Positions 12,749 through 23,755 of a stretch of DNA of 64,000 bases are shown here, piece by piece; the first letter of the stretch is position 1, and each line of letters begins with the position of its first letter. The notes below the pieces were generated by a model. It ran no database searches. It worked only from the letters and a program-made list of their open reading frames with translations, and was not told the DNA's origin. A program made the position numbers and the translations under genes. The stretch is taken from NCBI RefSeq assembly GCF_024710485.1, contig NZ_JANJUQ010000019.1, positions 1 through 64,000 of the forward strand, given 5' to 3'. This DNA comes from Flavobacterium sp. (GTDB taxonomy: Bacteria > Bacteroidota > Bacteroidia > Flavobacteriales > Flavobacteriaceae).

Positions 12749-13354
12749 ATGCTATTTGATCCTAACCTGCTTGAGTCATCGACAGTCTACAAATTAATGA
12801 CTGGTGCCATCATTCCCAGACCTATCGGATGGATTGCCACCGTAAGCGAAGACGGAATTAACAACCTCGCTCCGTTTTCCTATTTCAATGCTGCCGGGGA
12901 AGATCCGCCGCACATCATGTTTTCCGTAAACAGAGCCAACCACACCAATAAAGATACTTTAAACAACATACTGGCGAACGGTCAGTTTGTGGTAAACATG
13001 GTGACCGAAAACACGGTGGAACAAATGAATTCTACAGCGCAATCGGTTCCGGCTGAAGTAGACGAATTTGTCTTAGCCGGTGTTACGCCTATTCCCTCCG
13101 TAAAAATAAAACCCATGCGCGTAGCGGAAAGTCCGGTACAATTGGAATGTGAACTGGTCCATCATTACTTTCTCGAAGATCATAAAAACGGCGGATCGTG
13201 TATCATTATAGGCCGAATCGTGATGATGCATTTTGACGACGCAGTGCTATTAGACAATTACAAAATCAATTTAGAAACCTATAAGCCGATTTCGCGATTA
13301 GCAGGCTCCAATTACGCCAAATTGGGAGAACTTTTCTCCATCAAACGAGGCTAA
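12749..13354 (+). CDS. Flavin reductase-like FMN-binding protein
   Basis: Belongs to the flavin reductase/FMN-binding split-barrel family. The N-terminal TGAIIPRPIGWIATVS and the following NLAPFSYFNAAGEDPPHIMFSV are diagnostic. The C-terminal SRLAGSNYAKLGELF block is common in members found in aromatic catabolic clusters. At 201 residues it is full length and cytosolic. As first gene of the cluster it may supply reduced flavin to the flavoenzymes downstream, or act as a reductase on a pathway intermediate. The downstream monooxygenase binds its own FAD, so a reduced-flavin supply role is not required. Confidence 0.85.
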   Translation: MLFDPNLLESSTVYKLMTGAIIPRPIGWIATVSEDGINNLAPFSYFNAAGEDPPHIMFSVNRANHTNKDTLNNILANGQFVVNMVTENTVEQMNSTAQSVPAEVDEFVLAGVTPIPSVKIKPMRVAESPVQLECELVHHYFLEDHKNGGSCIIIGRIVMMHFDDAVLLDNYKINLETYKPISRLAGSNYAKLGELFSIKRG

Positions 13355-13360
13355 ACTAAA

Positions 13361-13396
13361 AGACTCAGCAACTCAGTTACTCAGTCACTCAGAAAC
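13361..13396 (+). repeat. CTCAG microrepeat in the cluster spacer
   Basis: Four imperfect tandem copies of an ACTCAG(N)AA-type word fill the gap between two catabolic genes. Related CTCAG/CTTAG words recur at 15726-15755 and 21784-21818. Confidence 0.6.
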
Positions 13397-13404
13397 TTTA
13401 AAAT

Positions 13405-15723
13405 ATGAAAATAGCAGTTATAGGCGGTGGTCCGGGCGGACTCTACTTCTCCATCCTAACCAAAAAAGCAATGCCGCATTGCCAAATTGACGTGTACGAA
13501 CGCAACAAACCCGACGACAGTTTTGGTTTTGGGGTAGTATTCTCCGATGAAACTTTAGGCGAATTCCTTAAACGCGATATGCAATCGTATGAATTAATTC
13601 GAAGTCAATTTGCCTATTGGGACGATATCATTGTAGCACGAGATGGTCAGGAAGTCAGCATCGCCGGAAATGGATTCTGCGGTTGCTCCCGAAAAACATT
13701 GCTTAAATTATTACACCAACGTTGTCGCGAAGAAGGCGTTATCTTGCATTTCGAACAAAATATAGATGATATCAGTCAGTACCAAGACGCCGATATCATT
13801 TTGGCTTCCGACGGAATTAGCAGTGGCATCCGAACGCAATATGAAAAGGAATTCGGCACCAAAATCTCGCTTAAGAAAAATCGCTTTGTATGGCTAGGCT
13901 CGACCAAACCATTGGATGCCTTTACCTACTTCTTCCGAAGTACGCCTCATGGCACTATCGTAGCCCATACGTACCAATACGAAGCCGGCATGAGTACTTG
14001 GATTTTTGAATGCAGTGACGAAACCTGGCAAAAGCACGGTTTTGAAGTCACCAACGAAGCCGATACCATAGCCAAAATAGCCGAAATATTCGCAGCAGAA
14101 CTCGACGGACATTCGCTTATTTCCAACAAATCGCATTGGCGTCAATTCCCGCATGTAACCAACGAAAAATGGTACCATAACAACATCGTTTTGTTAGGCG
14201 ATGCCAAAGCCACAGCCCATTATTCAATCGGCTCGGGAACTAAACTGGCGATGGATTGCGCTATCGGTTTATCCGATGCCGTAATTGCCAATCCGAATAA
14301 CGTACAAGCGGCTTTCGAGCAATACGAAAAAACCCGTCGCAATACGGTAGAAATGATTCAATACGCTGCCTTGGTTTCCCTCGATTGGTTTGAACACATG
14401 GACCGACACATGCAGCATCCGTTTTACCAATTTGCCTTCGGTTGTATGACGCGTTCCAAAAAAGTCACTTTTGAAAATTTAAGGTTACGCGATAAATCGT
14501 TTACAGATAAAGTATTGGCTGAATTTCATCAGAACGCAGTCATCCCGAGTGCAGTCATCCCGAGCGCAGTCGAGGAACCGGCTGCATTCACCAAATTCCG
14601 ACTACGCGATTTAGAACTGCAAAACCGCATCGTCATGTCAGCCATGGGTCAGTACTCGGCCACCGACGGCAAAGTTTCCGATTGGCATTTGGTACACTAC
14701 GGTAGTAGAGCCACCGGTGGTGTCGGACTCATTATTAGCGAAATGACAGCGGTATCCGAAACCGGACGCATCACTTTAGGTTGTGCCGGAATTTACACTC
14801 AAGAACAATTAGTTGACTGGAAAAAGATAACCGATTTTATCCATCAAAACACCCAAGCTAAAATAGGAATTCAACTAGGACATTCCGGTCGAAAAGGCGC
14901 TGTGAAAAAACCGTGGGAAGGTACTAATGAACCTATCGAGCTACCATGGGATTTGCTATCGGCCTCGCCTATCGCTTTCAATGAGAAGATGCCGATTCCC
15001 AAAGAAATGACTTTGGAAGATATGGATTTGATAACCGACCAATTTGTGCTAGCCACTCATAATGCCGACAAAGCCGGTTTCGATCTAATCGAACTCCAAG
15101 CGCATCACGGATTCTTATTGGCTTCGTTCCTGTCGCCTTTAACCAATATCAGAGCCGACGAATTTGGCGGCAGTATCGAAAACCGTTTGAAGTTTCCATT
15201 AAGGGTTTTCACCGAAATGCGAAAAGCATTCCCTCCACACAAACCCATGTCAGTTCGAATTTCCGCTTCCGATTGGGCCGAAAACGGAATCACTGAAGAA
15301 GAAGTTATTATCATAGCAACAGCCTTCAAAAATGCCGGAGCCGATATCATCAACGTTTCAACCGGAAATACCGTAGCGCATCAAAAACCGCAAATCGGCC
15401 GTATGTGGCAAACACCTTTCTCCGATGCCGTTCGAAACACCGTTCACATCCCAACCATCACAGCGGGTTACATCCAAGATATTGATCAAATCAACACCAT
15501 ACTTCTCAACGGTAGAGCCGATTTAGTGGCGCTGGGCCGACCGTTACTAGCCGATGCTAATTTTGTGAGAAATACGCAAGCCTACGAACAATTTGAAGCT
15601 GCAGACATTCCCAATCCCTACAAAGCCGGAAGTTCTCATCTTTATCCGCTAAAAGCCGCCGAAAGAAAACAAACCGAAAGTATGAAAAAAGCATTGAAAC
15701 CAAAGAGTAATAAGAAAGATTAA
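13405..15723 (+). CDS. Fused FAD monooxygenase / Old Yellow Enzyme (aryl-CoA 5-hydroxylase type)
   Basis: A 772-residue fusion. Residues 1-375 are a flavin-dependent aromatic hydroxylase with GGGPGGLY at the N-terminus and the second FAD motif LLGDAKATAHYSIGSGTKLA. Residues 392-765 are an Old-Yellow-Enzyme TIM barrel starting FRLRDLELQNRIVMSAMGQY, with ELQAHHGFLL and GRADLVALGRPLLAD. This layout is that of 2-aminobenzoyl-CoA monooxygenase/reductase and of bifunctional salicylyl-CoA 5-hydroxylases, which hydroxylate C5 of an aryl-CoA. The joint (378-392) is encoded by a tandem 15-base repeat. The CoA ligase next door supports a thioester substrate. Whether the reductase half acts on the product is unknown. 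Confidence 0.88.
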   Translation: MKIAVIGGGPGGLYFSILTKKAMPHCQIDVYERNKPDDSFGFGVVFSDETLGEFLKRDMQSYELIRSQFAYWDDIIVARDGQEVSIAGNGFCGCSRKTLLKLLHQRCREEGVILHFEQNIDDISQYQDADIILASDGISSGIRTQYEKEFGTKISLKKNRFVWLGSTKPLDAFTYFFRSTPHGTIVAHTYQYEAGMSTWIFECSDETWQKHGFEVTNEADTIAKIAEIFAAELDGHSLISNKSHWRQFPHVTNEKWYHNNIVLLGDAKATAHYSIGSGTKLAMDCAIGLSDAVIANPNNVQAAFEQYEKTRRNTVEMIQYAALVSLDWFEHMDRHMQHPFYQFAFGCMTRSKKVTFENLRLRDKSFTDKVLAEFHQNAVIPSAVIPSAVEEPAAFTKFRLRDLELQNRIVMSAMGQYSATDGKVSDWHLVHYGSRATGGVGLIISEMTAVSETGRITLGCAGIYTQEQLVDWKKITDFIHQNTQAKIGIQLGHSGRKGAVKKPWEGTNEPIELPWDLLSASPIAFNEKMPIPKEMTLEDMDLITDQFVLATHNADKAGFDLIELQAHHGFLLASFLSPLTNIRADEFGGSIENRLKFPLRVFTEMRKAFPPHKPMSVRISASDWAENGITEEEVIIIATAFKNAGADIINVSTGNTVAHQKPQIGRMWQTPFSDAVRNTVHIPTITAGYIQDIDQINTILLNGRADLVALGRPLLADANFVRNTQAYEQFEAADIPNPYKAGSSHLYPLKAAERKQTESMKKALKPKSNKKD
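14536..14580 (+). repeat. 15-base tandem repeat encoding the fusion linker
   Basis: Two near-identical 15-base units (GCAGTCATCCCGAGT and GCAGTCATCCCGAGC) and a diverged third unit encode AVIPS-AVIPS-AVEEP between the two enzyme domains. The CATCCCGAGCGCAGTCGAGG word is a common flavobacterial intergenic repeat, and a relative occurs at 18981-19003. Confidence 0.75.
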
Positions 15724-15725
15724 AA

Positions 15726-15755
15726 CCTCAGAACCTTAGATTCTCACGACCTTAG
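15726..15755 (+). repeat. CTCAG/CTTAG microrepeat in the cluster spacer
   Basis: Imperfect copies of ACCTCAG/ACCTTAG words fill the gap before the CoA ligase gene, like those at 13361 and 21784. Confidence 0.5.
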
Positions 15756-15765
15756 TACTTATCTC

Positions 15766-17355
15766 ATGAAACATTACCAAGATAATTTCGCCCACGATAA
15801 TTTACCTAGTCCCGATTTACAACCGGACTATGTTTTCTTGGACTTGCCGCAATTCCGGCAACCGGAAATGCTGAATTGTGTGGAGAAGCTATTAGACAAA
15901 CACATTCATAACGGTCATGGAAACGCACCTTGCCTACGCACTTTTGAATACACTTGGACCTATCAGGAATTGTATGAAAAGGCCAACCAAATTGCCCATG
16001 TTTTGGTGGAAGATTTGGGACTGAAATCGGGTAATCGTGTATTAATTCGTTCAGCCAACAATCCAATGATGGTTGCCGTTTGGTTTGCCGTATTAAAAGC
16101 CGGGGGTATCGTAGTAGCCACTATGCCCTTGTTGCGGGCCAAAGAATTAAGCACGATAATCGACTGTGCCGAAATCTCACACGCCATCTGCGACCATAGT
16201 CTAGCCGATGAAATGCATTTGGTCAAATCCGACCATTTGCAAAAAGTTTGTTTTTACAGCAATTCGAGTTTGGAAGCATTAATGCAACACAAACCTAAGA
16301 CATTCAACAACTACCACAGCAAATCGGACAGCATCGCTTTGATCGGATTTACTTCAGGCACCACGGGTTTGCCTAAAATGACAGCGCACTTCCACAAAGA
16401 TATTGTCAATATCTGTGAAGCGTTTCCGCAGTATTCCTTACAGCCAACTCAAGATGATATCTTTACCGGTAGTCCGCCACTAGGATTTACCTTTGGCTTG
16501 GGTGGATTGGTATTGTTTCCGCTGTATTTTGGTGCTTCCACTTTCTTAATAGAGAAACCAACACCTGATATGCTGTTACAAGCCATACAGGACTACAAAA
16601 TCACGATTTGCTTCACCGCGCCTACGGCTTGGCGCATCATTACCACCAAAGTCAAAGATTTCGACATATCAAGCCTTCGCAAATGCGTGTCAGCCGGAGA
16701 AACGCTGCCGCTGAAAGTTTGGCAAGATTGGTACGACGCCACCGACCTAAAAATCATCGACGGGATTGGTGCTACCGAAATGTTGCATATCTTTATATCT
16801 TCTAATGAAGATAATATGAAACCCGGCGCCACAGGCGTAGCCATTACCGGTTACGAAGCCAAAGTAGTAGATGCTGCAGGAAATGAGGTCGCCGTAAACG
16901 AACCCGGCAAACTCATGGTACGTGGCATCACCGGCTGTAAATATTTGAATCGCGAAGACAAACAACGCGAGTACGTGCAAAACGGTTGGAACTTTACGGG
17001 CGATATTTTCCGCAAGGATGAAGACGGCTATTTTTGGTTTGTGGCGCGCGGCGATGATATGATTATATCGTCCGGCTACAACATTGCGGCCATCGAAGTG
17101 GAAAGCGTATTGTTAACGCACGAAGAAATCCTCGAATGCGCCGTAGTAGGATTGCCAGATGAAGAACGCGGCATGTTAGTTTGTGCGCACATTGTACTAA
17201 AAGATTGCAGTAAAGCTACCGATAACATGAAGAACCATATTCAACACTGGTTCAAAGAAGTAGCTGCTCCGTATAAATATCCGAGAGTGATTTATTTTAC
17301 TGAAACTTTGCCTAAAACAGAGACCGGTAAAATTCAACGGTTTAAATTAAAGTAA
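15766..17355 (+). CDS. Aryl-CoA ligase (benzoate/2-aminobenzoate-CoA ligase family)
   Basis: An ANL-superfamily acid-CoA ligase of 529 residues. The adenylation motif GFTSGTTGLPKMT, the A5-type motif DGIGATEMLHIF, the TGDIFRKDEDGYFWF hinge region, the SSGYNIAAIEVE motif and the catalytic lysine in TETGKIQRFKLK are present. DGIGATEMLHIF closely resembles benzoate-CoA ligases, which activate benzoate-type acids with ATP and CoA. It lies between the aryl-CoA hydroxylase and a gene starting one base after its stop, so co-transcription is very likely. The acid it activates is probably salicylate or 2-aminobenzoate, inferred only from its neighbours. Confidence 0.88.
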   Translation: MKHYQDNFAHDNLPSPDLQPDYVFLDLPQFRQPEMLNCVEKLLDKHIHNGHGNAPCLRTFEYTWTYQELYEKANQIAHVLVEDLGLKSGNRVLIRSANNPMMVAVWFAVLKAGGIVVATMPLLRAKELSTIIDCAEISHAICDHSLADEMHLVKSDHLQKVCFYSNSSLEALMQHKPKTFNNYHSKSDSIALIGFTSGTTGLPKMTAHFHKDIVNICEAFPQYSLQPTQDDIFTGSPPLGFTFGLGGLVLFPLYFGASTFLIEKPTPDMLLQAIQDYKITICFTAPTAWRIITTKVKDFDISSLRKCVSAGETLPLKVWQDWYDATDLKIIDGIGATEMLHIFISSNEDNMKPGATGVAITGYEAKVVDAAGNEVAVNEPGKLMVRGITGCKYLNREDKQREYVQNGWNFTGDIFRKDEDGYFWFVARGDDMIISSGYNIAAIEVESVLLTHEEILECAVVGLPDEERGMLVCAHIVLKDCSKATDNMKNHIQHWFKEVAAPYKYPRVIYFTETLPKTETGKIQRFKLK

Positions 17356-17356
17356 G

Positions 17357-18937
17357 ATGAGAAAAGCATTTTTAGTTTTTGCGATTACGACACTGGCCAT
17401 CATGGGCGTATTAACCTATGTCAACTGGAAGTTTAGTTTCTTGGGGTTAATTTTTATACCGTTAATCCTAATGGGATTTTACGATATGTTCCAATCCAAA
17501 AGAACCATCCGCAGAAACTTTCCTTTGTTGGGAAGAATGCGCTACTTGTTAGAAGCATTGGGTCCCGGCGCCCGACAATATTTTATTGAAAGTGATACCG
17601 ACGGCAAACCGTTCAACCGCCTACAACGCAGTTTAGTATACCAACGTAGCAAAAAAGAAACCGATTCCAATCCGTTCGGTACGCAATTAGACCTTTACGA
17701 AATTGGTTACCAATGGATCAACCACAGCATCAAAGCCATTCCATTTTCACAAGTCAACAGCAATCCGAGAGTAAAAATTGGTTCGTCACAATGCGAAAAA
17801 CCTTATGAAGCCAGTTTATTCAACATCAGTGCAATGAGCTACGGTTCATTAAGTAAGAATGCTGTTTTGGCTTTAAACAACGGTGCCAAACAAGGTGGAT
17901 TTTACCACAATACCGGAGAAGGCGGCTTATCACCTTACCATTTGCAGGGTGGTGATGTAGTTTGGAATATCGGAACTGGCTACTTCAGCTGTCGCGACAA
18001 AAACGGTAATTTCTCTTATGACGAATTTGTCAAAAGAGCGACCTTAGACAACGTAAAAATGATTGAAATCAAATTCTCTCAAGGCGCCAAACCCGGACAT
18101 GGCGGTATTTTACCCAAAGAGAAAGTTACTGATGAAATTGCAGCCATTCGCCTAGTTGACAAAGGACACGACATCATTTCACCGCCAACACATTCAGCTT
18201 TCAAAACACCACTGGAATTAATGGAATTCGTAAAACTATTGCGAAAAGGCTCCGGTGGCAAACCCATCGGGATGAAAATCTGCATTGGCAACAAATCCGA
18301 ATTCATCGCCATCTGTAAAGCCATGGTGCAAACCAAGACAACTTTCGATTTTATCACCGTCGATGGTGGCGAAGGCGGAACCGGTGCTGCTCCGCAGGAA
18401 TACTCAGACCACGTGGGCATGCCGTTGCGAGACGCCTTGGCTTTTGTATACGATTGTCTGGTAGGATTCGATTTGAAAAAAGACATCAAAATCATCTGTA
18501 GCGGTAAAATCATAACAGGATTCGACATCATCAAAACCTTGTCTATTGGTGCCGATTTGTGCAATTCGGCCCGTGGGATGATGTTCGCTTTGGGCTGCAT
18601 TCAGGCGCTCGAATGCCATGCCAATACTTGCCCGACGGGAGTAGCCACGCAAGACCCGCGGCTGACCAAAGGCTTAGTACCCGAAGAAAAAAGCATACGC
18701 GTAGCGCGCTTCCAACACGAAACGGTGAAAAGCGCTATGGAACTCATGGCCTCGGCCGGCATCGATCATCCCGATAAAGTAGACCGAAGCGTCGTGAGTA
18801 TGCGCATTGACCGTACCCAAATCAAGACTTTTGAAGAGACGTATCCCGAACTTAAAGTCGGTTGCCTACTCGATGGCAGCAAAGTCCCTAACGAGATGTT
18901 TCGATTTTGGAAAAATGCAAGTGCCGAACATTTTTAG
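17357..18937 (+). CDS. Membrane-anchored FMN-binding glutamate synthase-domain protein
   Basis: A 526-residue protein with two N-terminal hydrophobic segments (about residues 4-24 and 26-44) and then the FMN/Fe-S domain of glutamate synthase. Typical blocks are SAMSYGSLSKNAVLALNNGA, GEGGLSPYH, SQGAKPGHGGILP, TVDGGEGGTGAAP and CHANTCPTGVATQDP. The glutaminase domain is absent, so it cannot use glutamine as ammonia donor. Stand-alone members are widespread, and their function is not known to me. It begins one base after the ligase stop codon, which ties it to the cluster. Ammonia capture or a redox role are possibilities and neither is shown. Confidence 0.85.
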   Translation: MRKAFLVFAITTLAIMGVLTYVNWKFSFLGLIFIPLILMGFYDMFQSKRTIRRNFPLLGRMRYLLEALGPGARQYFIESDTDGKPFNRLQRSLVYQRSKKETDSNPFGTQLDLYEIGYQWINHSIKAIPFSQVNSNPRVKIGSSQCEKPYEASLFNISAMSYGSLSKNAVLALNNGAKQGGFYHNTGEGGLSPYHLQGGDVVWNIGTGYFSCRDKNGNFSYDEFVKRATLDNVKMIEIKFSQGAKPGHGGILPKEKVTDEIAAIRLVDKGHDIISPPTHSAFKTPLELMEFVKLLRKGSGGKPIGMKICIGNKSEFIAICKAMVQTKTTFDFITVDGGEGGTGAAPQEYSDHVGMPLRDALAFVYDCLVGFDLKKDIKIICSGKIITGFDIIKTLSIGADLCNSARGMMFALGCIQALECHANTCPTGVATQDPRLTKGLVPEEKSIRVARFQHETVKSAMELMASAGIDHPDKVDRSVVSMRIDRTQIKTFEETYPELKVGCLLDGSKVPNEMFRFWKNASAEHF

Positions 18938-19049
18938 GAGCTGTTTCCCGCTATCCGTTGCAATCTTTTATTACTTTGTCACCCTAAGCGCTGTCGAAGG
19001 GATTTTCTGAAAAGTAATAAAAGGATTTCCACTACTATCGGGGCTAAAC
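18937..19049 (-). repeat. Flavobacterial palindromic intergenic repeat (REP-like), copy A
   Basis: On the minus strand it reads GCCCCGATAG, AGTGGAAATCCTTTT, an inner arm, then AAAAGATTGCAACGG and GATAGCGGGAAACAGC. The inner ATTACTTTTC...GTAATAAAAG arms form a long hairpin. A second copy with the same end words lies at 22808-22932. The rest of the gap to 19179 holds AATCTGT-type words and no gene. Confidence 0.7.
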
Positions 19050-19179
19050 ATATCAGCAAGAGTAAATGATTAATTTAAAATTTAGTAAAAGTTGGTGTAA
19101 TTCGTAACAAAAAAATCAGTGCTAATCTGTTTAATCTGTGGCAAAAAATAAAAACTAATCAGTAGCAAAAAAATAAAAC

Positions 19180-19605
19180 ATGAACCAAACCTTTACCAAA
19201 CCAGAAAAAATACGTTTCAAACACGTCGATTACGCCGGTATCGTTTTCTATCCGCGCTTTTTAGAAATGCTCAACGACTTGGTCGAAGATTGGTTTGAAG
19301 AAGCCCTCGACCGACCGTTCTCCAAAATTCACGAAACCAATGGGATTCCAACCGTGGATTTAAAAGTACAATTCAAAAAAGCCGCCCGCATAGGAGAACT
19401 GTTAACCAAAAAACTTTGGGTCATCAAACTCGGCGGTGCTTCCGTAACTTGCGGTTTCCGTTTTGAAGATGAACAAGGCAATACCTGTTTGGAAGGCGAA
19501 GTTATTTTAGTTAACGTAGGTATCAGCAACGGCAGAGACGCCATCAAAGCGGAACCGTTTTCGGAAGAGATGAAAAACAAAATAACAAAGTACCAACTGT
19601 CTTAA
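19180..19605 (+). CDS. Acyl-CoA thioesterase (4-hydroxybenzoyl-CoA type hotdog fold)
   Basis: A 141-residue single-hotdog thioesterase. The FKHVDYAGIVFYPRFLEML block contains the active-site aspartate (Asp17) and matches 4-hydroxybenzoyl-CoA thioesterases and the YbgC family. In this cluster it would hydrolyse the hydroxylated aryl-CoA to the free acid before ring cleavage, a step needed because the downstream dioxygenase family acts on free gentisate-type acids. It follows a repeat-rich 240-base gap, so it may have its own promoter. Confidence 0.87.
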   Translation: MNQTFTKPEKIRFKHVDYAGIVFYPRFLEMLNDLVEDWFEEALDRPFSKIHETNGIPTVDLKVQFKKAARIGELLTKKLWVIKLGGASVTCGFRFEDEQGNTCLEGEVILVNVGISNGRDAIKAEPFSEEMKNKITKYQLS

Positions 19606-19636
19606 TACTTAATACTTTTGTCTTAATACTCAAACT

Positions 19637-20617
19637 ATGGACTTTAAAAAATTCAAAGCCGCTACCGTACAAACAGCACCGGTTTTTCTGAACGTGGAAA
19701 AAACGATAGCCAAAGCGATTGCTTTTGTTAAAGAAGCTGCCGATAACGGAGCGCAACTCATCGCCTTTCCCGAGGTATTCGTGGCCGGTTACCCTTACTG
19801 GAACTGGATCATGACACCGGTACAAGGCAGCAAATGGTACGAGCTATTGTATAAAAACTCAGTAGCTGTTTCGGACGAAAACATGCAACCTTTGTACCAA
19901 GCCGCGAAAGATTTCAATATACACATCGTCATCGGCATCAACGAGCGTGGCGACAGTTATGGCGAAATTTACAACACCAACCTGATTATTGATAACCACG
20001 GAAAAGTCATCGGCAAACACCGCAAATTAGTCCCAACCTGGGCTGAAAAGCTTACTTGGACGTCCGGCGATGGTTCTTCTCTCAAAGTGTATGATACTGA
20101 AGTTGGTCCGATTGGCACTTTAGCTTGTGGTGAAAACACCAATACCTTAGCCCGTTTTACTCTATTGTCGCAAGGCGAATTAGTTCACATCGCCAATTAC
20201 ATTTCACTACCGGTAGCACCACCCGATTACGACATGGCGGAAGCGATTAAAATTCGGGCCGCGGCACATTCCTTCGAAGGCAAATTGTTTACAATTGTTT
20301 CCTGCTCAACCATTTCTCAGGAGATAAAAGATGCCTTACGCGCTGATGTACCTAATGTGGATGAATTATTATCACGCAAAAGCTCTGCCTTTTCCGGATT
20401 TATTGGTCCGAATGGCGCTGTGATTGGCACACCGCTAATTGATGACGAAGGGATTGTTTATGCCGATATCGATTTGGAGAAATGCATCCAACCGAAACAA
20501 ATGCACGACATACTCGGGCATTACAACCGATTTGATATTTTTGATTTAAGAGTCAATACCGCTCCAACCAGAAAGATTACCTTTGTAGATAACCACGATG
20601 AATTCAACCAAAAATAA
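19637..20617 (+). CDS. Nitrilase (carbon-nitrogen hydrolase superfamily)
   Basis: A 326-residue enzyme of the nitrilase branch. The catalytic triad is Glu46 (AFPEVFVAGYP), Lys130 (GKHRKLVPTW) and Cys164 (TLACGENTNTLARF). The RKLVPTWAEKLTWTSGDGS and LLSQGELVHIANY stretches are typical of true nitrilases, which convert nitriles to acids plus ammonia. A role as amidase or deaminase on a ring-cleavage product cannot be excluded, since the superfamily handles several C-N bonds. It sits between the thioesterase and the ring-cleavage gene, one base before the latter. Confidence 0.88.
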   Translation: MDFKKFKAATVQTAPVFLNVEKTIAKAIAFVKEAADNGAQLIAFPEVFVAGYPYWNWIMTPVQGSKWYELLYKNSVAVSDENMQPLYQAAKDFNIHIVIGINERGDSYGEIYNTNLIIDNHGKVIGKHRKLVPTWAEKLTWTSGDGSSLKVYDTEVGPIGTLACGENTNTLARFTLLSQGELVHIANYISLPVAPPDYDMAEAIKIRAAAHSFEGKLFTIVSCSTISQEIKDALRADVPNVDELLSRKSSAFSGFIGPNGAVIGTPLIDDEGIVYADIDLEKCIQPKQMHDILGHYNRFDIFDLRVNTAPTRKITFVDNHDEFNQK

Positions 20618-20618
20618 T

Positions 20619-21731
20619 ATGGAAACCAACAACTTTTCAGACGACGTTATCGGGCGTGCCCGTGTACAAGACACCCCTGAACTCGAAGCCTATTATAAAG
20701 AATTAGAAACCTTAGGAGCCGGAGCACTTTGGACAGTAGCCAACGATATTGAACCTTGGGAACCCCGAGCGAATTCGGTCCCTATGTTGTGGAAATACGA
20801 CGACTTGCGCAGTTTGGTTTTAAAATCTTCCGAACTCGTAACGCCTGAACAAGCCGGAAGACGTGTCGTATATTTGGTAAACGATAAAAGGAAAGACGTT
20901 TCTGCCGCCGTAGGTTGGTTGTACACCGGAATCCAAGTTACCCGTCCGGGCGAAAGTACTTCGGCGCACCGCCATCGTGCTTCTGCCCTACGCTTTATCA
21001 TGGAAGGTTCTAAAGGCTATACCGTAGTTGACGGCAATAAAATCATGTTGGAAGTCAACGACTTTGTCATCACACCCAACTCAGCCTGGCACGAACACGG
21101 TGTAGAAGCCGACGGGCAAACCTGTATTTGGCAAGACGGTTTGGATATTCCGTTAGTGAATGCTTTAGAAGCCAATGATTATGCCGTGTATGATGGCAAA
21201 CAACCGTTGGTAAAACCCATCAACCATTTGCCGTTGAGCTACAGTTGCGCGGGTTTAATTCCGGCTGACAAGACTTGGGACAAACCGTATTCGCCTTTGT
21301 TTAAATATTCGTGGAGTAAAGTCTACCCGGCTTTGTTAAACGCGCAAGTGGTCAACCATCCGGATCCGTTTGACGGTATTTTGATGCAATACTCTAATCC
21401 GCTCACCGGTGGTCATGTGATGCAAACGATGGGAGCCGCCATGCAATTGCTACCAGCCGGTTTCCACGGGAAAGCACACAAACATACGGGGTCATTTGTG
21501 TACCAATGCGCTAAAGGAAGCGGCTACTCCATCATCAACGGGCAACGCTTTGATTGGAAGGAACGCGATATTTTCTGCGTACCAAGTTGGGCGTGGCACG
21601 AACACCACAATGCTTCTGACACCGAAGATGCGTGTTTGTTTAACTTCAACGACTTGCCGGTCATTGAAGGCTTAGGCTTGTTCCAAGGCAGAGAATACAC
21701 CGAAAACAATGGGCGTCAGAAAATACAATGA
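20619..21731 (+). CDS. Gentisate 1,2-dioxygenase family ring-cleavage enzyme
   Basis: A bicupin Fe(II) dioxygenase of 370 residues. The first cupin carries HRHRASALRFIMEG and the metal-binding motif region ending AWHEHG. The second carries GKAHKHTGSFVYQ and AWHEHHN. WQDGLDIPLVNALEANDY is characteristic of gentisate, salicylate and 1-hydroxy-2-naphthoate dioxygenases. It opens the ring between the carboxyl- and hydroxyl-bearing carbons to give maleylpyruvate (or its amino analogue from 5-hydroxyanthranilate). I take the ATG at 20619; one at 20598 overlapping the nitrilase end is also possible. Confidence 0.9.
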   Translation: METNNFSDDVIGRARVQDTPELEAYYKELETLGAGALWTVANDIEPWEPRANSVPMLWKYDDLRSLVLKSSELVTPEQAGRRVVYLVNDKRKDVSAAVGWLYTGIQVTRPGESTSAHRHRASALRFIMEGSKGYTVVDGNKIMLEVNDFVITPNSAWHEHGVEADGQTCIWQDGLDIPLVNALEANDYAVYDGKQPLVKPINHLPLSYSCAGLIPADKTWDKPYSPLFKYSWSKVYPALLNAQVVNHPDPFDGILMQYSNPLTGGHVMQTMGAAMQLLPAGFHGKAHKHTGSFVYQCAKGSGYSIINGQRFDWKERDIFCVPSWAWHEHHNASDTEDACLFNFNDLPVIEGLGLFQGREYTENNGRQKIQ

Positions 21732-21783
21732 CAGTGAGAATGACAAAAATGAATTCTAACTTAGAACATACAACAAACTAAAA

Positions 21784-21818
21784 CCTCAGAACCTTAGCGC
21801 CTCAGCGCCTTAGCACCT
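21784..21818 (+). repeat. CTCAG/CTTAG microrepeat in the cluster spacer
   Basis: Tandem words CCTCAGAACCTTAGCGCCTC and CAGCGCCTTAGCACC, all built on C(C/T)TAGC or CTCAG units, precede the hydrolase gene. Confidence 0.6.
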
Positions 21819-21826
21819 TTTAAAAA

Positions 21827-22741
21827 ATGAAACTACTCACTTACCAGACAAAAGACACCGAACCCCGTTTAGGATTTCTACATAACAATCAAGTCATCGA
21901 TATGGAAGATTTTGGCGAAATTTCAAATTTCCCGTTGCCTTCTGATATGTTGGACTTGATTGACATGGGGATTGAAATCATAGATGAATTGAACGAAATG
22001 GTGGCGGAAACTCCGGAAAATTACTTTAAAGAAATCGCTTATGAATTGGAAGAGGTGACACTTTTGGCTCCGATTCAAAAACCGAGAAAAAATATTATCG
22101 GCATTGGATTAAACTATACCGAACACGTAGCGGAAAGCGCAAGAACCTTAGACACTACAGGCAAATTACCTCAAAAACCGATTATCTTTTCAAAACCGCC
22201 AACAACGGTTACGGGAACCAATACCGAGATCATTAAGAACACCAAACTGACTTCGCAATTGGATTGGGAAGTGGAATTGGCTGTCATAATTGGCAAACAA
22301 GGAAAGTATGTTCCTAAAGCGGAAGCGATGGATTATGTTTTTGGTTATACAGTAATCAATGATATTTCAGCTCGCGATTGTCGTCGAGAAGGCCAATGGA
22401 TAGTTTCCAAAGGACAAGATACTTTTGCGCCTATGGGACCAATATTAGTTACCAAAGACGAAATCGAAAATCCACACAACCTGAATTTATCGTTAAAAGT
22501 AAACGGTATAGAAAAGCAAAACTCAAACACTAAATTCTTATTGTTCAACATTAACGATTTGATAGAAGATTTGAGTATCGTATTTACTTTAGATCCGGGA
22601 GACATTATAGCCACCGGTACTCCGGCAGGTGTCGGAGCCGGACGCGATCCTCAAGAATGGTTGCACGATGGTGATGTGGTGGAAGCGACTGTAGAAGGCA
22701 TTGGTACGATAATAAATACGGTGAAGGAGATTTCAAGATAA
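21827..22741 (+). CDS. Fumarylacetoacetate hydrolase family enzyme (maleyl/fumarylpyruvate hydrolase)
   Basis: A metal-dependent C-C hydrolase of 304 residues. Family blocks are IGIGLNYTEHVAES, the metal-ligand region WEVELAVIIGKQGKYV, YTVINDISARDCRR, SKGQDTFAPMGP and the closing GDIIATGTPAGVGAGRDP. After gentisate-type ring cleavage it would split maleylpyruvate (or fumarylpyruvate) into pyruvate and maleate (or fumarate). No maleylpyruvate isomerase is encoded nearby, but a maleate isomerase is, so direct hydrolysis to maleate is the simplest reading. Confidence 0.88.
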   Translation: MKLLTYQTKDTEPRLGFLHNNQVIDMEDFGEISNFPLPSDMLDLIDMGIEIIDELNEMVAETPENYFKEIAYELEEVTLLAPIQKPRKNIIGIGLNYTEHVAESARTLDTTGKLPQKPIIFSKPPTTVTGTNTEIIKNTKLTSQLDWEVELAVIIGKQGKYVPKAEAMDYVFGYTVINDISARDCRREGQWIVSKGQDTFAPMGPILVTKDEIENPHNLNLSLKVNGIEKQNSNTKFLLFNINDLIEDLSIVFTLDPGDIIATGTPAGVGAGRDPQEWLHDGDVVEATVEGIGTIINTVKEISR

Positions 22742-22758
22742 AAAACAGGTTGCGTTAG

Positions 22759-22800
22759 ATTTGATATTAAGAGGAGGGCAGCCGGTGGCTGTCAGGTAAA
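22759..22800 (+). other. Structured hairpin element, copy 2
   Basis: The same 18-base lead as at 790 is followed by a 7-bp stem, GGCAGCC and GGCTGTC, with the same GGT loop and then AGGTAAAAATAA. Five stem positions differ from copy 1 and all remain paired (one as G-U). TAGATTTG (22756-22763), which overlaps the lead, fits a -7 box. It lies just after the hydrolase gene. Confidence 0.55.
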
Positions 22801-22807
22801 AATAATA

Positions 22808-22932
22808 GCTGCGTTAGGGATTCCTTCGGCAGTCGCTTCGCTCGTGTGAAGTGGAAATCCTTTTTAGGATTGCCCTGAAGCAAAGCGGAAGGGAAATACA
22901 ATCCTAAAAAGATTGCAACGTAAAGCCCGACC
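22808..22932 (+). repeat. Flavobacterial palindromic intergenic repeat (REP-like), copy B
   Basis: Reads GCTGCGTTAGGGATTC, then GAAGTGGAAATCC, TTTTTAGGATTG with its inverted arm CAATCCTAAAAA, then GATTGCAACG and AAAGCCCGACC. It shares GTGGAAATCC and AGATTGCAACG with copy A at 18937 in opposite orientation. A CTCGTC/GACGAG hairpin follows at 22932-22948. It splits the hydrolase and maleate isomerase genes. Confidence 0.7.
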
Positions 22933-23005
22933 TCGTCCATCAGACGAGTTAACGTCCAACAAACAATTAAAAACTCAGTAACATAGCTGATCAGTAACTT
23001 TGATT

Positions 23006-23755
23006 ATGAAAAAATTTAAAATAGGACAAATCGTTCCATCCTCCAACGTGACGATGGAAACCGAAATACCGGCCATTTTCAGGGCCAGAGAAACCATATT
23101 GCCGGAACGTTTTACGTTTCACAGCAGTCGCATGCGAATGAAAAAAGTGACCAAAGAAGAACTCGAAGCCATGGATGCGATGAGTCTGAAATGCGCTCAA
23201 GAATTGTCAGACGCCCATGTGGACGTGATGGGTTACGCATGCTTGGTAGCAATTATGAGTATGGGACGCGGCTATCACTGCGTTTCGGAAGTGAACCTGC
23301 ATCAGGAAACAGTGGCAAATGACTTCCCAACGCCTATCGTAACGTCGGCAGGGGCTTTGATTAACGGTTTGAAAGTGTTGGGTGCCAAACAAATTTCGAT
23401 TATTACGCCGTATATGCGTCCGCTCACCGACAAAGTAGTCGATTATATTGAGCACCAAGGCATCAAAGTAAAAGAAAGCATTGCCCTGGAAATTCCCGAT
23501 AACTTGGAAGTGGCAGCGCAAAATCCGATGAACTTATTGGAAATATACAAGCAATTGGATTTGAACGATGTAGATGTATTGGTAGCTTCGGCTTGTGTGC
23601 AAATGCCTTCGTTGGAAGCTATAGATTTAATTCAGGCGGAATGCGGGATTCCGGTGACTTCGGCAGCCGTGTGTACCACTTACGAAATGATGAAAAAATT
23701 GGGCATTGAGGCCAAATCGACTATAGGGGGCGAATTGCTGAGTGGGAAATATTAG
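23006..23755 (+). CDS. Maleate cis-trans isomerase (Asp/Glu racemase superfamily)
   Basis: A 249-residue member of the Asp/Glu racemase superfamily. The two active-site cysteines are Cys79 (VMGYACLVAIMSMG) and Cys197 (LVASACVQMPS), spaced as in characterised maleate isomerases. These enzymes convert maleate to fumarate without cofactor. In this cluster it would take the maleate released by the hydrolase into the TCA cycle. I chose ATG 23006. Arylmalonate decarboxylases are relatives, but the paired cysteines favour isomerase. Confidence 0.87.
   Translation: MKKFKIGQIVPSSNVTMETEIPAIFRARETILPERFTFHSSRMRMKKVTKEELEAMDAMSLKCAQELSDAHVDVMGYACLVAIMSMGRGYHCVSEVNLHQETVANDFPTPIVTSAGALINGLKVLGAKQISIITPYMRPLTDKVVDYIEHQGIKVKESIALEIPDNLEVAAQNPMNLLEIYKQLDLNDVDVLVASACVQMPSLEAIDLIQAECGIPVTSAAVCTTYEMMKKLGIEAKSTIGGELLSGKY

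What the first reader, a model, noticed from the sequence alone, without database searches (positions are those of the whole stretch)
12749..23755. Nine-gene aryl-CoA/gentisate-type catabolic cluster in a Flavobacterium-like genome
Seen: flavin reductase-like, fused aryl-CoA hydroxylase/OYE, aryl-CoA ligase, glutamate-synthase-domain protein, thioesterase, nitrilase, gentisate-family dioxygenase, FAH hydrolase and maleate isomerase in one direction. Known: 2-aminobenzoyl-CoA monooxygenase/reductase and salicylyl-CoA 5-hydroxylase act on CoA thioesters, and gentisate dioxygenase acts on free acids. Inferred: acid to CoA ester, 5-hydroxylation, thioesterase release, ring cleavage, hydrolysis to maleate plus pyruvate, isomerisation to fumarate. 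I know no described pathway with exactly this gene set.
Basis: partly seen in the sequence, partly recalled or inferred. Interest (0 to 1): 0.85.

Follow-up and report, generated by a model that had tools for sequence, protein, structure and literature searches.

The report
Anthranilate-degrading gene cluster in Flavobacterium
A conserved group of genes in many Flavobacterium species most likely breaks down anthranilate, a tryptophan waste product, by a route not found in our searches, in which the ring's nitrogen leaves through an amide that a nitrilase-like enzyme would cut.

Summary
The nine genes are real. Eight form a conserved core: 59 of 80 related Flavobacterium loci carry all eight in one order, the other 21 are prefixes of it; the glutamate-synthase-like gene is optional (29 of 80). 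The ligase is 46-51% identical to nine of nine ligases beside 2-aminobenzoyl-CoA monooxygenase/reductase-type genes, one of them assayed. The nitrilase-dioxygenase-FAH-maleate isomerase module recurs on proteobacterial plasmids, in Caballeronia beside an isatin hydrolase and an indolepyruvate oxidoreductase-like pair. Cleaving 5-hydroxyanthranilate should yield an amide, which would explain the nitrilase-family enzyme; nicotinate-type clusters with the same isomerase have an isochorismatase-family gene instead. In the fused flavoenzyme an OYE active-site His is Gln in 85 of 85 rows treated as dioxygenase-linked and His in 10 of 10 others; the Gln rows are not one clade (AU p 0.001). Nothing was assayed: substrate and amidase activity are inferred. 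Kynureninase co-occurrence did not discriminate. New variant of a known kind.

The parts
12749..13354 (+). flavin reductase-like protein (PF01613); role unknown, first gene of the conserved core
   Evidence: best solved match 3bpk 141 bits, also 2-nitrobenzoate nitroreductase 4z85 103 bits; present in 80 of 80 loci
13405..15723 (+). fused FAD monooxygenase / OYE protein, predicted anthraniloyl-CoA 5-hydroxylase; Gln565 (15097-15099) where OYEs and the reductase-type relatives have His
15766..17355 (+). AMP-forming ligase, predicted anthranilate-CoA ligase
   Evidence: best solved match anthranilate-CoA ligase 4wv3, 271 bits; 46.3% to the Rue61a ligase; 46-51% to nine ligases of such clusters
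17357..18937 (+). glutamate-synthase-domain (FMN) protein, optional member
   Evidence: PF01645 295 bits; in 29 of 80 loci
19180..19605 (+). 4HBT-family thioesterase, predicted to release 5-hydroxyanthranilate
   Evidence: PF13279; in 72 of 80 loci, the rest cut short
19637..20617 (+). nitrilase-superfamily enzyme with CGENTNTLAR motif, predicted maleamate (or maleamylpyruvate) amidase
   Evidence: PF00795 139 bits; motif in 71 of 71 relatives and 9 of 9 plasmid loci with the isomerase; co-occurs with the dioxygenase
20598..21731 (+). gentisate-type bicupin ring-cleavage dioxygenase, predicted to act on 5-hydroxyanthranilate; start may be 20619
   Evidence: best solved match 3bu7, 512 bits; TIGR02272 below cut-off
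21827..22741 (+). FAH-family hydrolase, predicted to split maleamylpyruvate to maleamate and pyruvate
   Evidence: PF01557 232 bits; best solved match 8sky 220 bits, maleylpyruvate hydrolase 6jvv 98 bits
23000..23755 (+). maleate cis-trans isomerase; start probably 23006
   Evidence: 4fq7 E 4.3e-95; both cysteine motifs in 59 of 59 relatives

Best explanation
The cluster encodes aerobic anthranilate (2-aminobenzoate) degradation through 5-hydroxyanthranilate and maleamate. (1) The ligase makes anthraniloyl-CoA. (2) The monooxygenase half of the fusion hydroxylates C5; because the OYE half has lost the first His of its HxxH pair, the product is not reduced but returns to the aromatic form, 5-hydroxyanthraniloyl-CoA. 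(3) The thioesterase releases 5-hydroxyanthranilate. (4) The gentisate-type dioxygenase cleaves C1-C2, turning the amino-bearing C2 into a carboxamide (maleamylpyruvate). (5) The FAH hydrolase splits off pyruvate, leaving maleamate. (6) The nitrilase-superfamily enzyme acts as an amidase, giving maleate and ammonia. (7) Maleate isomerase gives fumarate. Steps 5 and 6 could be in the other order. Shown by sequence: the gene set, its conservation, family membership, the company it keeps, the Gln/His difference. Inferred: every reaction. Some Proteobacteria appear to feed the same module from isatin/isatinate through an indolepyruvate oxidoreductase-like enzyme instead of a ligase.
For: Ligase: best solved match an anthranilate-CoA ligase, 271 bits against 221 for benzoate-CoA ligases; 46.3% identical to the Rue61a ligase whose E. 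coli extracts had anthranilate-CoA ligase activity; 496-531 bits to nine of nine ligases of such clusters against 101-130 bits to three other ligases near dioxygenases of this clade. Module: nitrilase of this kind and isomerase beside dioxygenase and FAH in 9 of 15 plasmid loci opened (motif 9 of 9); indolepyruvate oxidoreductase-like pair near it in 5 of 15, isatin-hydrolase-like gene in 3 of 15, the Caballeronia one 461 bits to a solved isatin hydrolase. Isomerase relatives lie in nicotinate-type clusters with an isochorismatase-family gene (2 opened of 199 records). Nitrilase and dioxygenase: both in 55, one only in 2, neither in 74 of 131 Flavobacterium genomes. Gln/His switch 85 of 85 against 10 of 10, needing three changes on the tree, one clade rejected with AU p 0.00104. 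PMC3534580 (passages) reports that the Azoarcus enzyme forms 5-hydroxyanthraniloyl-CoA when NADH is limiting.
Against: No step is assayed. Nitrilases of this branch are known for nitriles, and no sequence feature found here proves amidase activity. In 4 of 15 plasmid loci a different nitrilase (CWEN motif) occurs with no isomerase, and in 2 of 15 there is neither, so the module is not fixed. Kynureninase is in 127 of 131 Flavobacterium genomes, so its presence with the cluster (56 of 56) does not discriminate (Fisher p 0.135). The dioxygenase, fusion and nitrilase miss NCBI's curated cut-offs. 3bu7, in the same clade, was published as a gentisate dioxygenase (titles and citing passages only). 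The Arg that helps deprotonate a phenol in salicylate dioxygenase seems kept (by eye; the motif's place is recalled), which does not favour an amine. The thioesterase also occurs in beta-oxidation-type clusters. Rue61a does not grow on 5-hydroxyanthranilate, but lacks this dioxygenase in the stretch opened. The Gln/His grouping was noticed in part of the data before the rest was fetched; only three independent contrasts exist.
Confidence: 0.6

Rival explanations
1. One reading: salicylate to salicylyl-CoA, gentisyl-CoA, gentisate, maleylpyruvate, maleate, fumarate, with the nitrilase feeding in an aromatic nitrile such as 2-hydroxybenzonitrile.
For: The fusion is annotated as salicylyl-CoA 5-hydroxylase, the dioxygenase is gentisate-type, and 3bu7 was published as a gentisate dioxygenase.
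Against: The ligase groups with anthranilate-CoA ligases; the module elsewhere sits with isatin hydrolase and an indolepyruvate oxidoreductase-like pair; the nitrilase stays with dioxygenase, FAH and isomerase in clusters of different upstream genes, unlike an entry enzyme.
Confidence: 0.12
2. Anthranilate is the substrate, but nitrogen leaves elsewhere: 5-hydroxyanthranilate is first deaminated to gentisate, as proposed for Nocardia opaca, or the amide hydrolyses by another enzyme, and the nitrilase acts on a nitrile such as indole-3-acetonitrile.
For: Nocardia opaca route 5-hydroxyanthranilate to gentisate (PMC4539516, passages, citing Cain 1968); nitrilase family membership; nitrilases near indole-type genes in Proteobacteria.
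Against: No deaminase candidate recurs in the 80 loci; no indole-acetate oxygenase was seen in the Flavobacterium clusters, yet nitrilase and dioxygenase co-occur almost perfectly there.
Confidence: 0.2
3. The fusion works like the Azoarcus 2-aminobenzoyl-CoA monooxygenase/reductase, reducing the ring for beta-oxidation, and the dioxygenase, FAH and isomerase serve another compound.
For: 43.9% identity over the full length to the Rue61a enzyme; in one genome the dioxygenase-FAH-isomerase block lies on another contig (L066).
Against: No SDR, enoyl-CoA hydratase or acyl-CoA dehydrogenase in the window cluster, against all three in 6 of 7 beta-oxidation-type loci (Mesorhizobium, shows only later genes); the OYE His is lost in 80 of 80 relatives.
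Confidence: 0.05

Closest known systems
2-Aminobenzoyl-CoA pathway of Azoarcus evansii / Arthrobacter Rue61a (PMC4539516, PMC3534580; passages)
   Same: Anthranilate-CoA ligase of the same family and a full-length two-domain monooxygenase/OYE fusion
   Different: There the ring is reduced and degraded by beta-oxidation enzymes; here Gln replaces the OYE His and a thioesterase, gentisate-type dioxygenase, FAH, nitrilase and maleate isomerase follow
Salicylyl-CoA / gentisate route (Streptomyces sdg genes; recalled)
   Same: Works alike: CoA activation, 5-hydroxylation, thioesterase, gentisate-type cleavage
   Different: Amino instead of hydroxyl at C2, so an amide and a nitrilase-family step; maleate isomerase instead of the usual maleylpyruvate steps
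Nocardia opaca anthranilate route via 5-hydroxyanthranilate and gentisate (Cain 1968, as cited in PMC4539516)
   Same: 5-hydroxyanthranilate as intermediate
   Different: There deamination to gentisate is proposed before ring cleavage; genes not given in the passages read
Nicotinate / nicotine lower pathway (maleamate to maleate to fumarate; recalled)
   Same: Same isomerase family (4fq7) and, on this reading, the same maleamate-maleate-fumarate tail
   Different: There the amidase is isochorismatase-family (neighbours); here nitrilase-superfamily
iad indole-3-acetate pathway (PMC9613470, PMC12633357, PMC11630574; passages)
   Same: Indolepyruvate oxidoreductase-like and MarR genes; ends in anthranilate
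   Different: The passages found describe nothing below anthranilate; the present module would be a lower pathway

Membership tests
2-Aminobenzoyl-CoA monooxygenase/reductase (NCBIfam PRK08255) | Full-length monooxygenase + OYE fusion | tested here: met
   Residues 1-757 align to model 1-763 of 768; full-length identity to Rue61a enzyme 43.9%
2-Aminobenzoyl-CoA monooxygenase/reductase (NCBIfam PRK08255) | Curated equivalog cut-off | tested here: not met
   994.6 bits against 1078
2-Aminobenzoyl-CoA monooxygenase/reductase (NCBIfam PRK08255) | OYE HxxH pair for ring reduction | tested here: not met
   Gln at 565 in window and 80 of 80 relatives; His in 10 of 10 others; aligned on the His of solved OYEs
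2-Aminobenzoyl-CoA beta-oxidation pathway | SDR, enoyl-CoA hydratase, acyl-CoA dehydrogenase alongside | tested here: not met
   Absent from the window cluster; present in 6 of 7 reference loci (not 99)
Anthranilate-CoA ligases | Closer to assayed anthranilate-CoA ligases than to benzoate-CoA ligases | tested here: met
Anthranilate-CoA ligases | Activity on anthranilate | not testable with these tools
   needs purified enzyme
Gentisate 1,2-dioxygenase (TIGR02272) | Curated cut-off | tested here: not met
   297.8 against 442.1 bits; 5-aminosalicylate dioxygenase model 259.6 against 650
Gentisate 1,2-dioxygenase family, 3bu7 clade | Bicupin with histidine motifs as in 3bu7 | tested here: met
   HRH...HEH motifs of both cupin halves aligned; exact-letter motif searches found them in most, not all, relatives (58 of 63 for the second, 36 of 63 for the first)
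Nitrilase superfamily | CN_hydrolase domain with Glu, Lys, Cys catalytic residues | tested here: met
   PF00795 139 bits, cut-off 23.2; FPEV, HRKL, CGEN motifs; catalytic roles recalled
Nitrilase superfamily | Amide rather than nitrile as substrate | not testable with these tools
   inferred from gene company only
Maleate cis-trans isomerase | Strong match to the solved enzyme and two cysteine motifs | tested here: met
   4fq7 E 4.3e-95; both motifs in 59 of 59 relatives
Salicylyl-CoA / gentisate route | Salicylate as substrate | not testable with these tools
   sequence evidence points to anthranilate

The most novel reading that the evidence does not exclude
There is an unrecognised amide branch of aromatic catabolism: gentisate-type dioxygenases that open an amino-substituted ring to a carboxamide, with a nitrilase-superfamily amidase dedicated to maleamate. 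The solved 'gentisate dioxygenase' 3bu7 of Ruegeria pomeroyi lies in this module, so its natural substrate would be 5-hydroxyanthranilate. Repeated His/Gln changes in the fused OYE domain switch the upstream enzyme between ring reduction and plain hydroxylation. The module is the lower pathway for anthranilate in Flavobacterium and for isatin or indole-3-acetate in some Proteobacteria.
Probability: 0.5. Interest if true: 0.75.

Novelty: new variant of a known kind. Interest (0 to 1): 0.66.

Why it matters
If true it gives a complete gene set for a further aerobic anthranilate route beside the four in a 2015 review (PMC4539516, passages), found in Flavobacterium, in Proteobacteria and (module only) in an actinobacterium (L098). 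It would re-assign a structurally solved dioxygenase and a clade of 'nitrilases', offer a lower pathway for isatin and indole-3-acetate breakdown, and give a one-residue marker (His or Gln) for which product a widespread flavoenzyme makes. All of it can be tested with purified enzymes.

Tried and rejected
Kynureninase / 3-HAO co-occurrence as a test of anthranilate supply: uninformative, both are near-universal in the genus (127 and 116 of 131). Tryptophan 2,3-dioxygenase in 199 family genomes: 162 match, nearly all listed ones a weakly scoring form, not diagnostic. Two Bacteroidota genomes outside the genus with a fusion-like gene (G526; G354 with the monooxygenase half only) show none of the module genes in the 19.5 kb around it. 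A flavobacterial promoter pattern (recalled) gave 2 matches in the window, fewer than chance, none upstream of the cluster. (CBS domain) served only to learn the genome handle. Genes inserted in relatives' clusters (methyltransferase-, OsmC-, protease-, SRPBCC-, hydrolase-like, named by eye) differ from locus to locus and were set aside, though the SRPBCC-like one recurs in 25 of 80. Structure prediction and fold search were not run: solved relatives exist. Maleate isomerase was not found in the 6 plasmid records that lack it beside the dioxygenase; chromosomes were not searched and the tool warns that an empty answer shows nothing. The 3bu7 paper (Chen 2008) is not held, so its tested substrates were not seen.
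Full report
Observation. Gaps between genes are 1-95 bp or an overlap, except 242 bp before the thioesterase and 258 bp before the isomerase. The genome is a 2.70 Mb draft in 46 contigs. A scan of genome contigs with the fused protein gave 231 relatives, the best 80 kept; by title nearly all are Flavobacterium, Flavobacteriaceae or Bacteroidetes. In these 80 loci, 59 carry the flavin-reductase-like, fusion, ligase, thioesterase, nitrilase, dioxygenase, FAH and isomerase genes in that order and strand; the other 21 are prefixes of it (15 run off the held DNA, 6 are interrupted); the glutamate-synthase-domain gene is in 29 of 80. In the 6 interrupted genomes dioxygenase and isomerase are present, 6 of 6 each; of four opened, three have them on the same contig (with the nitrilase, behind an insert, in the two where it fell in the stretch) and one has dioxygenase-FAH-isomerase on another contig. 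Elsewhere in the phylum the fusion is rare: 8 of 395 genomes match at E 1e-90, 6 of them of the window's genus; the other two show no module genes nearby.

Which acid. The ligase's best solved match is an anthranilate-CoA ligase (4wv3, 271 bits), ahead of benzoate-CoA ligases (221 bits). It is 46-51% identical to the nine ligases beside PRK08255-type fusions that I fetched, and 22-26% to three other ligases near dioxygenases of this clade. One of the nine is from Rue61a, for which E. coli extracts with the cloned gene had anthranilate-CoA ligase activity (PMC3534580, passages; I match gene to record by its place next to the monooxygenase gene). Another lies with kynU and kynA, that is, tryptophan to anthranilate. 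The window's genome has kynureninase, 3-HAO and a weakly scoring tryptophan-dioxygenase-like gene, but nearly all Flavobacterium genomes have the first two, so this is compatible, not diagnostic: all 56 genomes with the dioxygenase have kynureninase, and so have 71 of the other 75 (Fisher p 0.135).

The module elsewhere. tblastn of plasmids with the dioxygenase matched 104 records; of the 40 listed, 17 are at 51% identity or more (the next near 40%), and I opened 15 of these 17 (two Novosphingobium humi records left out). FAH lies beside the dioxygenase in 15 of 15. A nitrilase of the window's kind (58-64% identity, CGENTNTLAR in 9 of 9) with a maleate isomerase: 9 of 15. A different nitrilase (30-32%, CWEN) with a flavin-reductase-like gene and no isomerase: 4 of 15. 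Neither: 2 of 15, one of them beside transposase genes. Five of 15 have indolepyruvate oxidoreductase-like alpha and beta genes nearby; 3 have a cyclase-family gene. The Caballeronia one matches solved isatin hydrolase 5nmp at 461 bits; the other two are 55 and 60% identical to it. Caballeronia has the oxidoreductase pair, thioesterase, fusion, dioxygenase, FAH, nitrilase, isomerase, MarR and isatin hydrolase in one stretch. I read this as isatin to isatinate to anthraniloyl-CoA, entering the same lower pathway (inference).

The nitrilase. Gentisate-type 1,2-cleavage puts an oxygen on C2; with an amino group there the product is an amide (inference from the known chemistry of gentisate cleavage). 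That makes a nitrilase-superfamily amidase useful and maleate isomerase the natural last step. The isomerase matches a solved maleate cis-trans isomerase. Two of its relatives on Agrobacterium and Rhizobium plasmids (2 opened of 199 records) lie in nicotinate-type clusters with an isochorismatase-family gene, the family of known maleamate amidase (cluster type and family function recalled). Nitrilase and dioxygenase co-occur: both in 55 of 131 Flavobacterium genomes, one only in 2 (drafts 85% and 68% complete), neither in 74 (Fisher p 9e-35, not corrected for kinship). All 71 Flavobacterium nitrilases read carry CGENTNTLAR. Two further relatives of this nitrilase, in Polaromonas (53%) and a haloarchaeon (47%), stand apart from dioxygenase genes, so the clade is not tied to the module everywhere. 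None of this proves amidase activity.

The fused flavoenzyme. Eight further fusions were fetched. Seven lie with beta-oxidation-type genes (six with SDR, enoyl-CoA hydratase and acyl-CoA dehydrogenase; Mesorhizobium with hydroxyacyl-CoA dehydrogenase and thiolase); one Rhodococcus copy lies beside a quinolone dioxygenase gene, a small cupin, FAH and RidA. In the OYE domain the first His of HxxH is Gln in the window, in 80 of 80 Flavobacterium loci and in the four proteobacterial fusions next to a dioxygenase of this clade (85 of 85), and His in 10 of 10 others. Of the 80 loci the dioxygenase is in the held DNA of 63 and further on or elsewhere in 5 more; 12 end too early to tell. Alignment to solved OYEs puts this residue on their conserved His (its catalytic role recalled). 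On a 24-row tree the label needs three changes and 0 of 200 bootstrap trees has one; with 23 rows, holding the Gln rows together is rejected (AU p 0.00104). The Gln groups are Flavobacterium, Caballeronia with Cupriavidus, and Novosphingobium. Only three independent contrasts exist, and the pattern was first seen in part of the data, so the p-value is a guide. PMC3534580 reports that the Azoarcus enzyme makes 5-hydroxyanthraniloyl-CoA when NADH is limiting; a reductase-impaired enzyme should make it always (inference).

A consequence. The Ruegeria dioxygenase in a nitrilase-dioxygenase-FAH-isomerase run is identical over 374 residues to 3bu7, the solved 'gentisate 1,2-dioxygenase'. The window protein scores 512 bits to it and 239 to 2d40, the next. 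Which substrates were tested on 3bu7 I could not see. The Arg thought to deprotonate a phenolic substrate in salicylate dioxygenase appears kept here, which is neutral or slightly against an amine.

Literature. A review (PMC4539516, passages) lists four aerobic anthranilate routes; none is this one, the nearest being the Nocardia route via 5-hydroxyanthranilate and gentisate. Searches listed no paper that appears to describe it; 'maleamylpyruvate' has no occurrence in the 40 papers listed of 64. The library holds open-licence papers only. The iad papers, by the passages found, end at anthranilate.

Verdict. A real, conserved catabolic cluster, best read as an anthranilate / 5-hydroxyanthranilate / maleamate pathway: a new variant built from known enzyme families. 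Steps by enzyme are inference; the order of FAH and amidase, and the role of the flavin-reductase-like and glutamate-synthase-domain proteins, are open.

Noticed in passing
L085:9974-11098 (Ruegeria pomeroyi megaplasmid): The structurally solved 'gentisate 1,2-dioxygenase' 3bu7 is this gene, in a nitrilase-dioxygenase-FAH-maleate isomerase run; its natural substrate may be 5-hydroxyanthranilate.
   Followed up: partly
L092, L094, L095, L096: Dioxygenase-FAH pairs of the same clade with a different (CWEN) nitrilase next to a flavin-reductase-like gene and no maleate isomerase: perhaps a sister pathway.
   Followed up: partly
L110, L119: Actinobacterial anthranilate/quinolone clusters with a small monocupin, FAH, TesB-type thioesterase and RidA beside ligase and fusion: a possible further ring-cleavage variant.
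   Followed up: no
47 of 80 related loci, upstream of the cluster: An acetyl-CoA-synthetase-like gene (by eye; with response regulator, symporter-kinase, transporter and porin genes in many) lies on the opposite strand upstream of the cluster in relatives.
   Followed up: no
L082:5915-8396 (own genome, contig C22): The kynureninase gene is followed by an Arginase-family gene; in this place it might be an unrecognised kynurenine formamidase.
   Followed up: no
L083:7255-8190 (own genome, contig C17): A short tryptophan-dioxygenase-like protein (96 bits to PF03301) near HPD- and homogentisate-dioxygenase-like genes (by eye); the form is spread through the family, function unclear.
   Followed up: no
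window 12749-23755: The cluster has 44.0% G+C against 38.9% for the window.
   Followed up: no
L018, L048, L057, L068: Contigs titled Rhizobium, Bifidobacterium breve, Limnohabitans and Chryseobacterium gleum carry Flavobacterium-like clusters (78-83% identity of the fusion): probably mislabelled or contaminated bins.
   Followed up: no
L109 / L121 (G354): A stand-alone monooxygenase half (380 aa) without the OYE domain, in a Bacteroidota genome, with no module genes nearby.
   Followed up: partly
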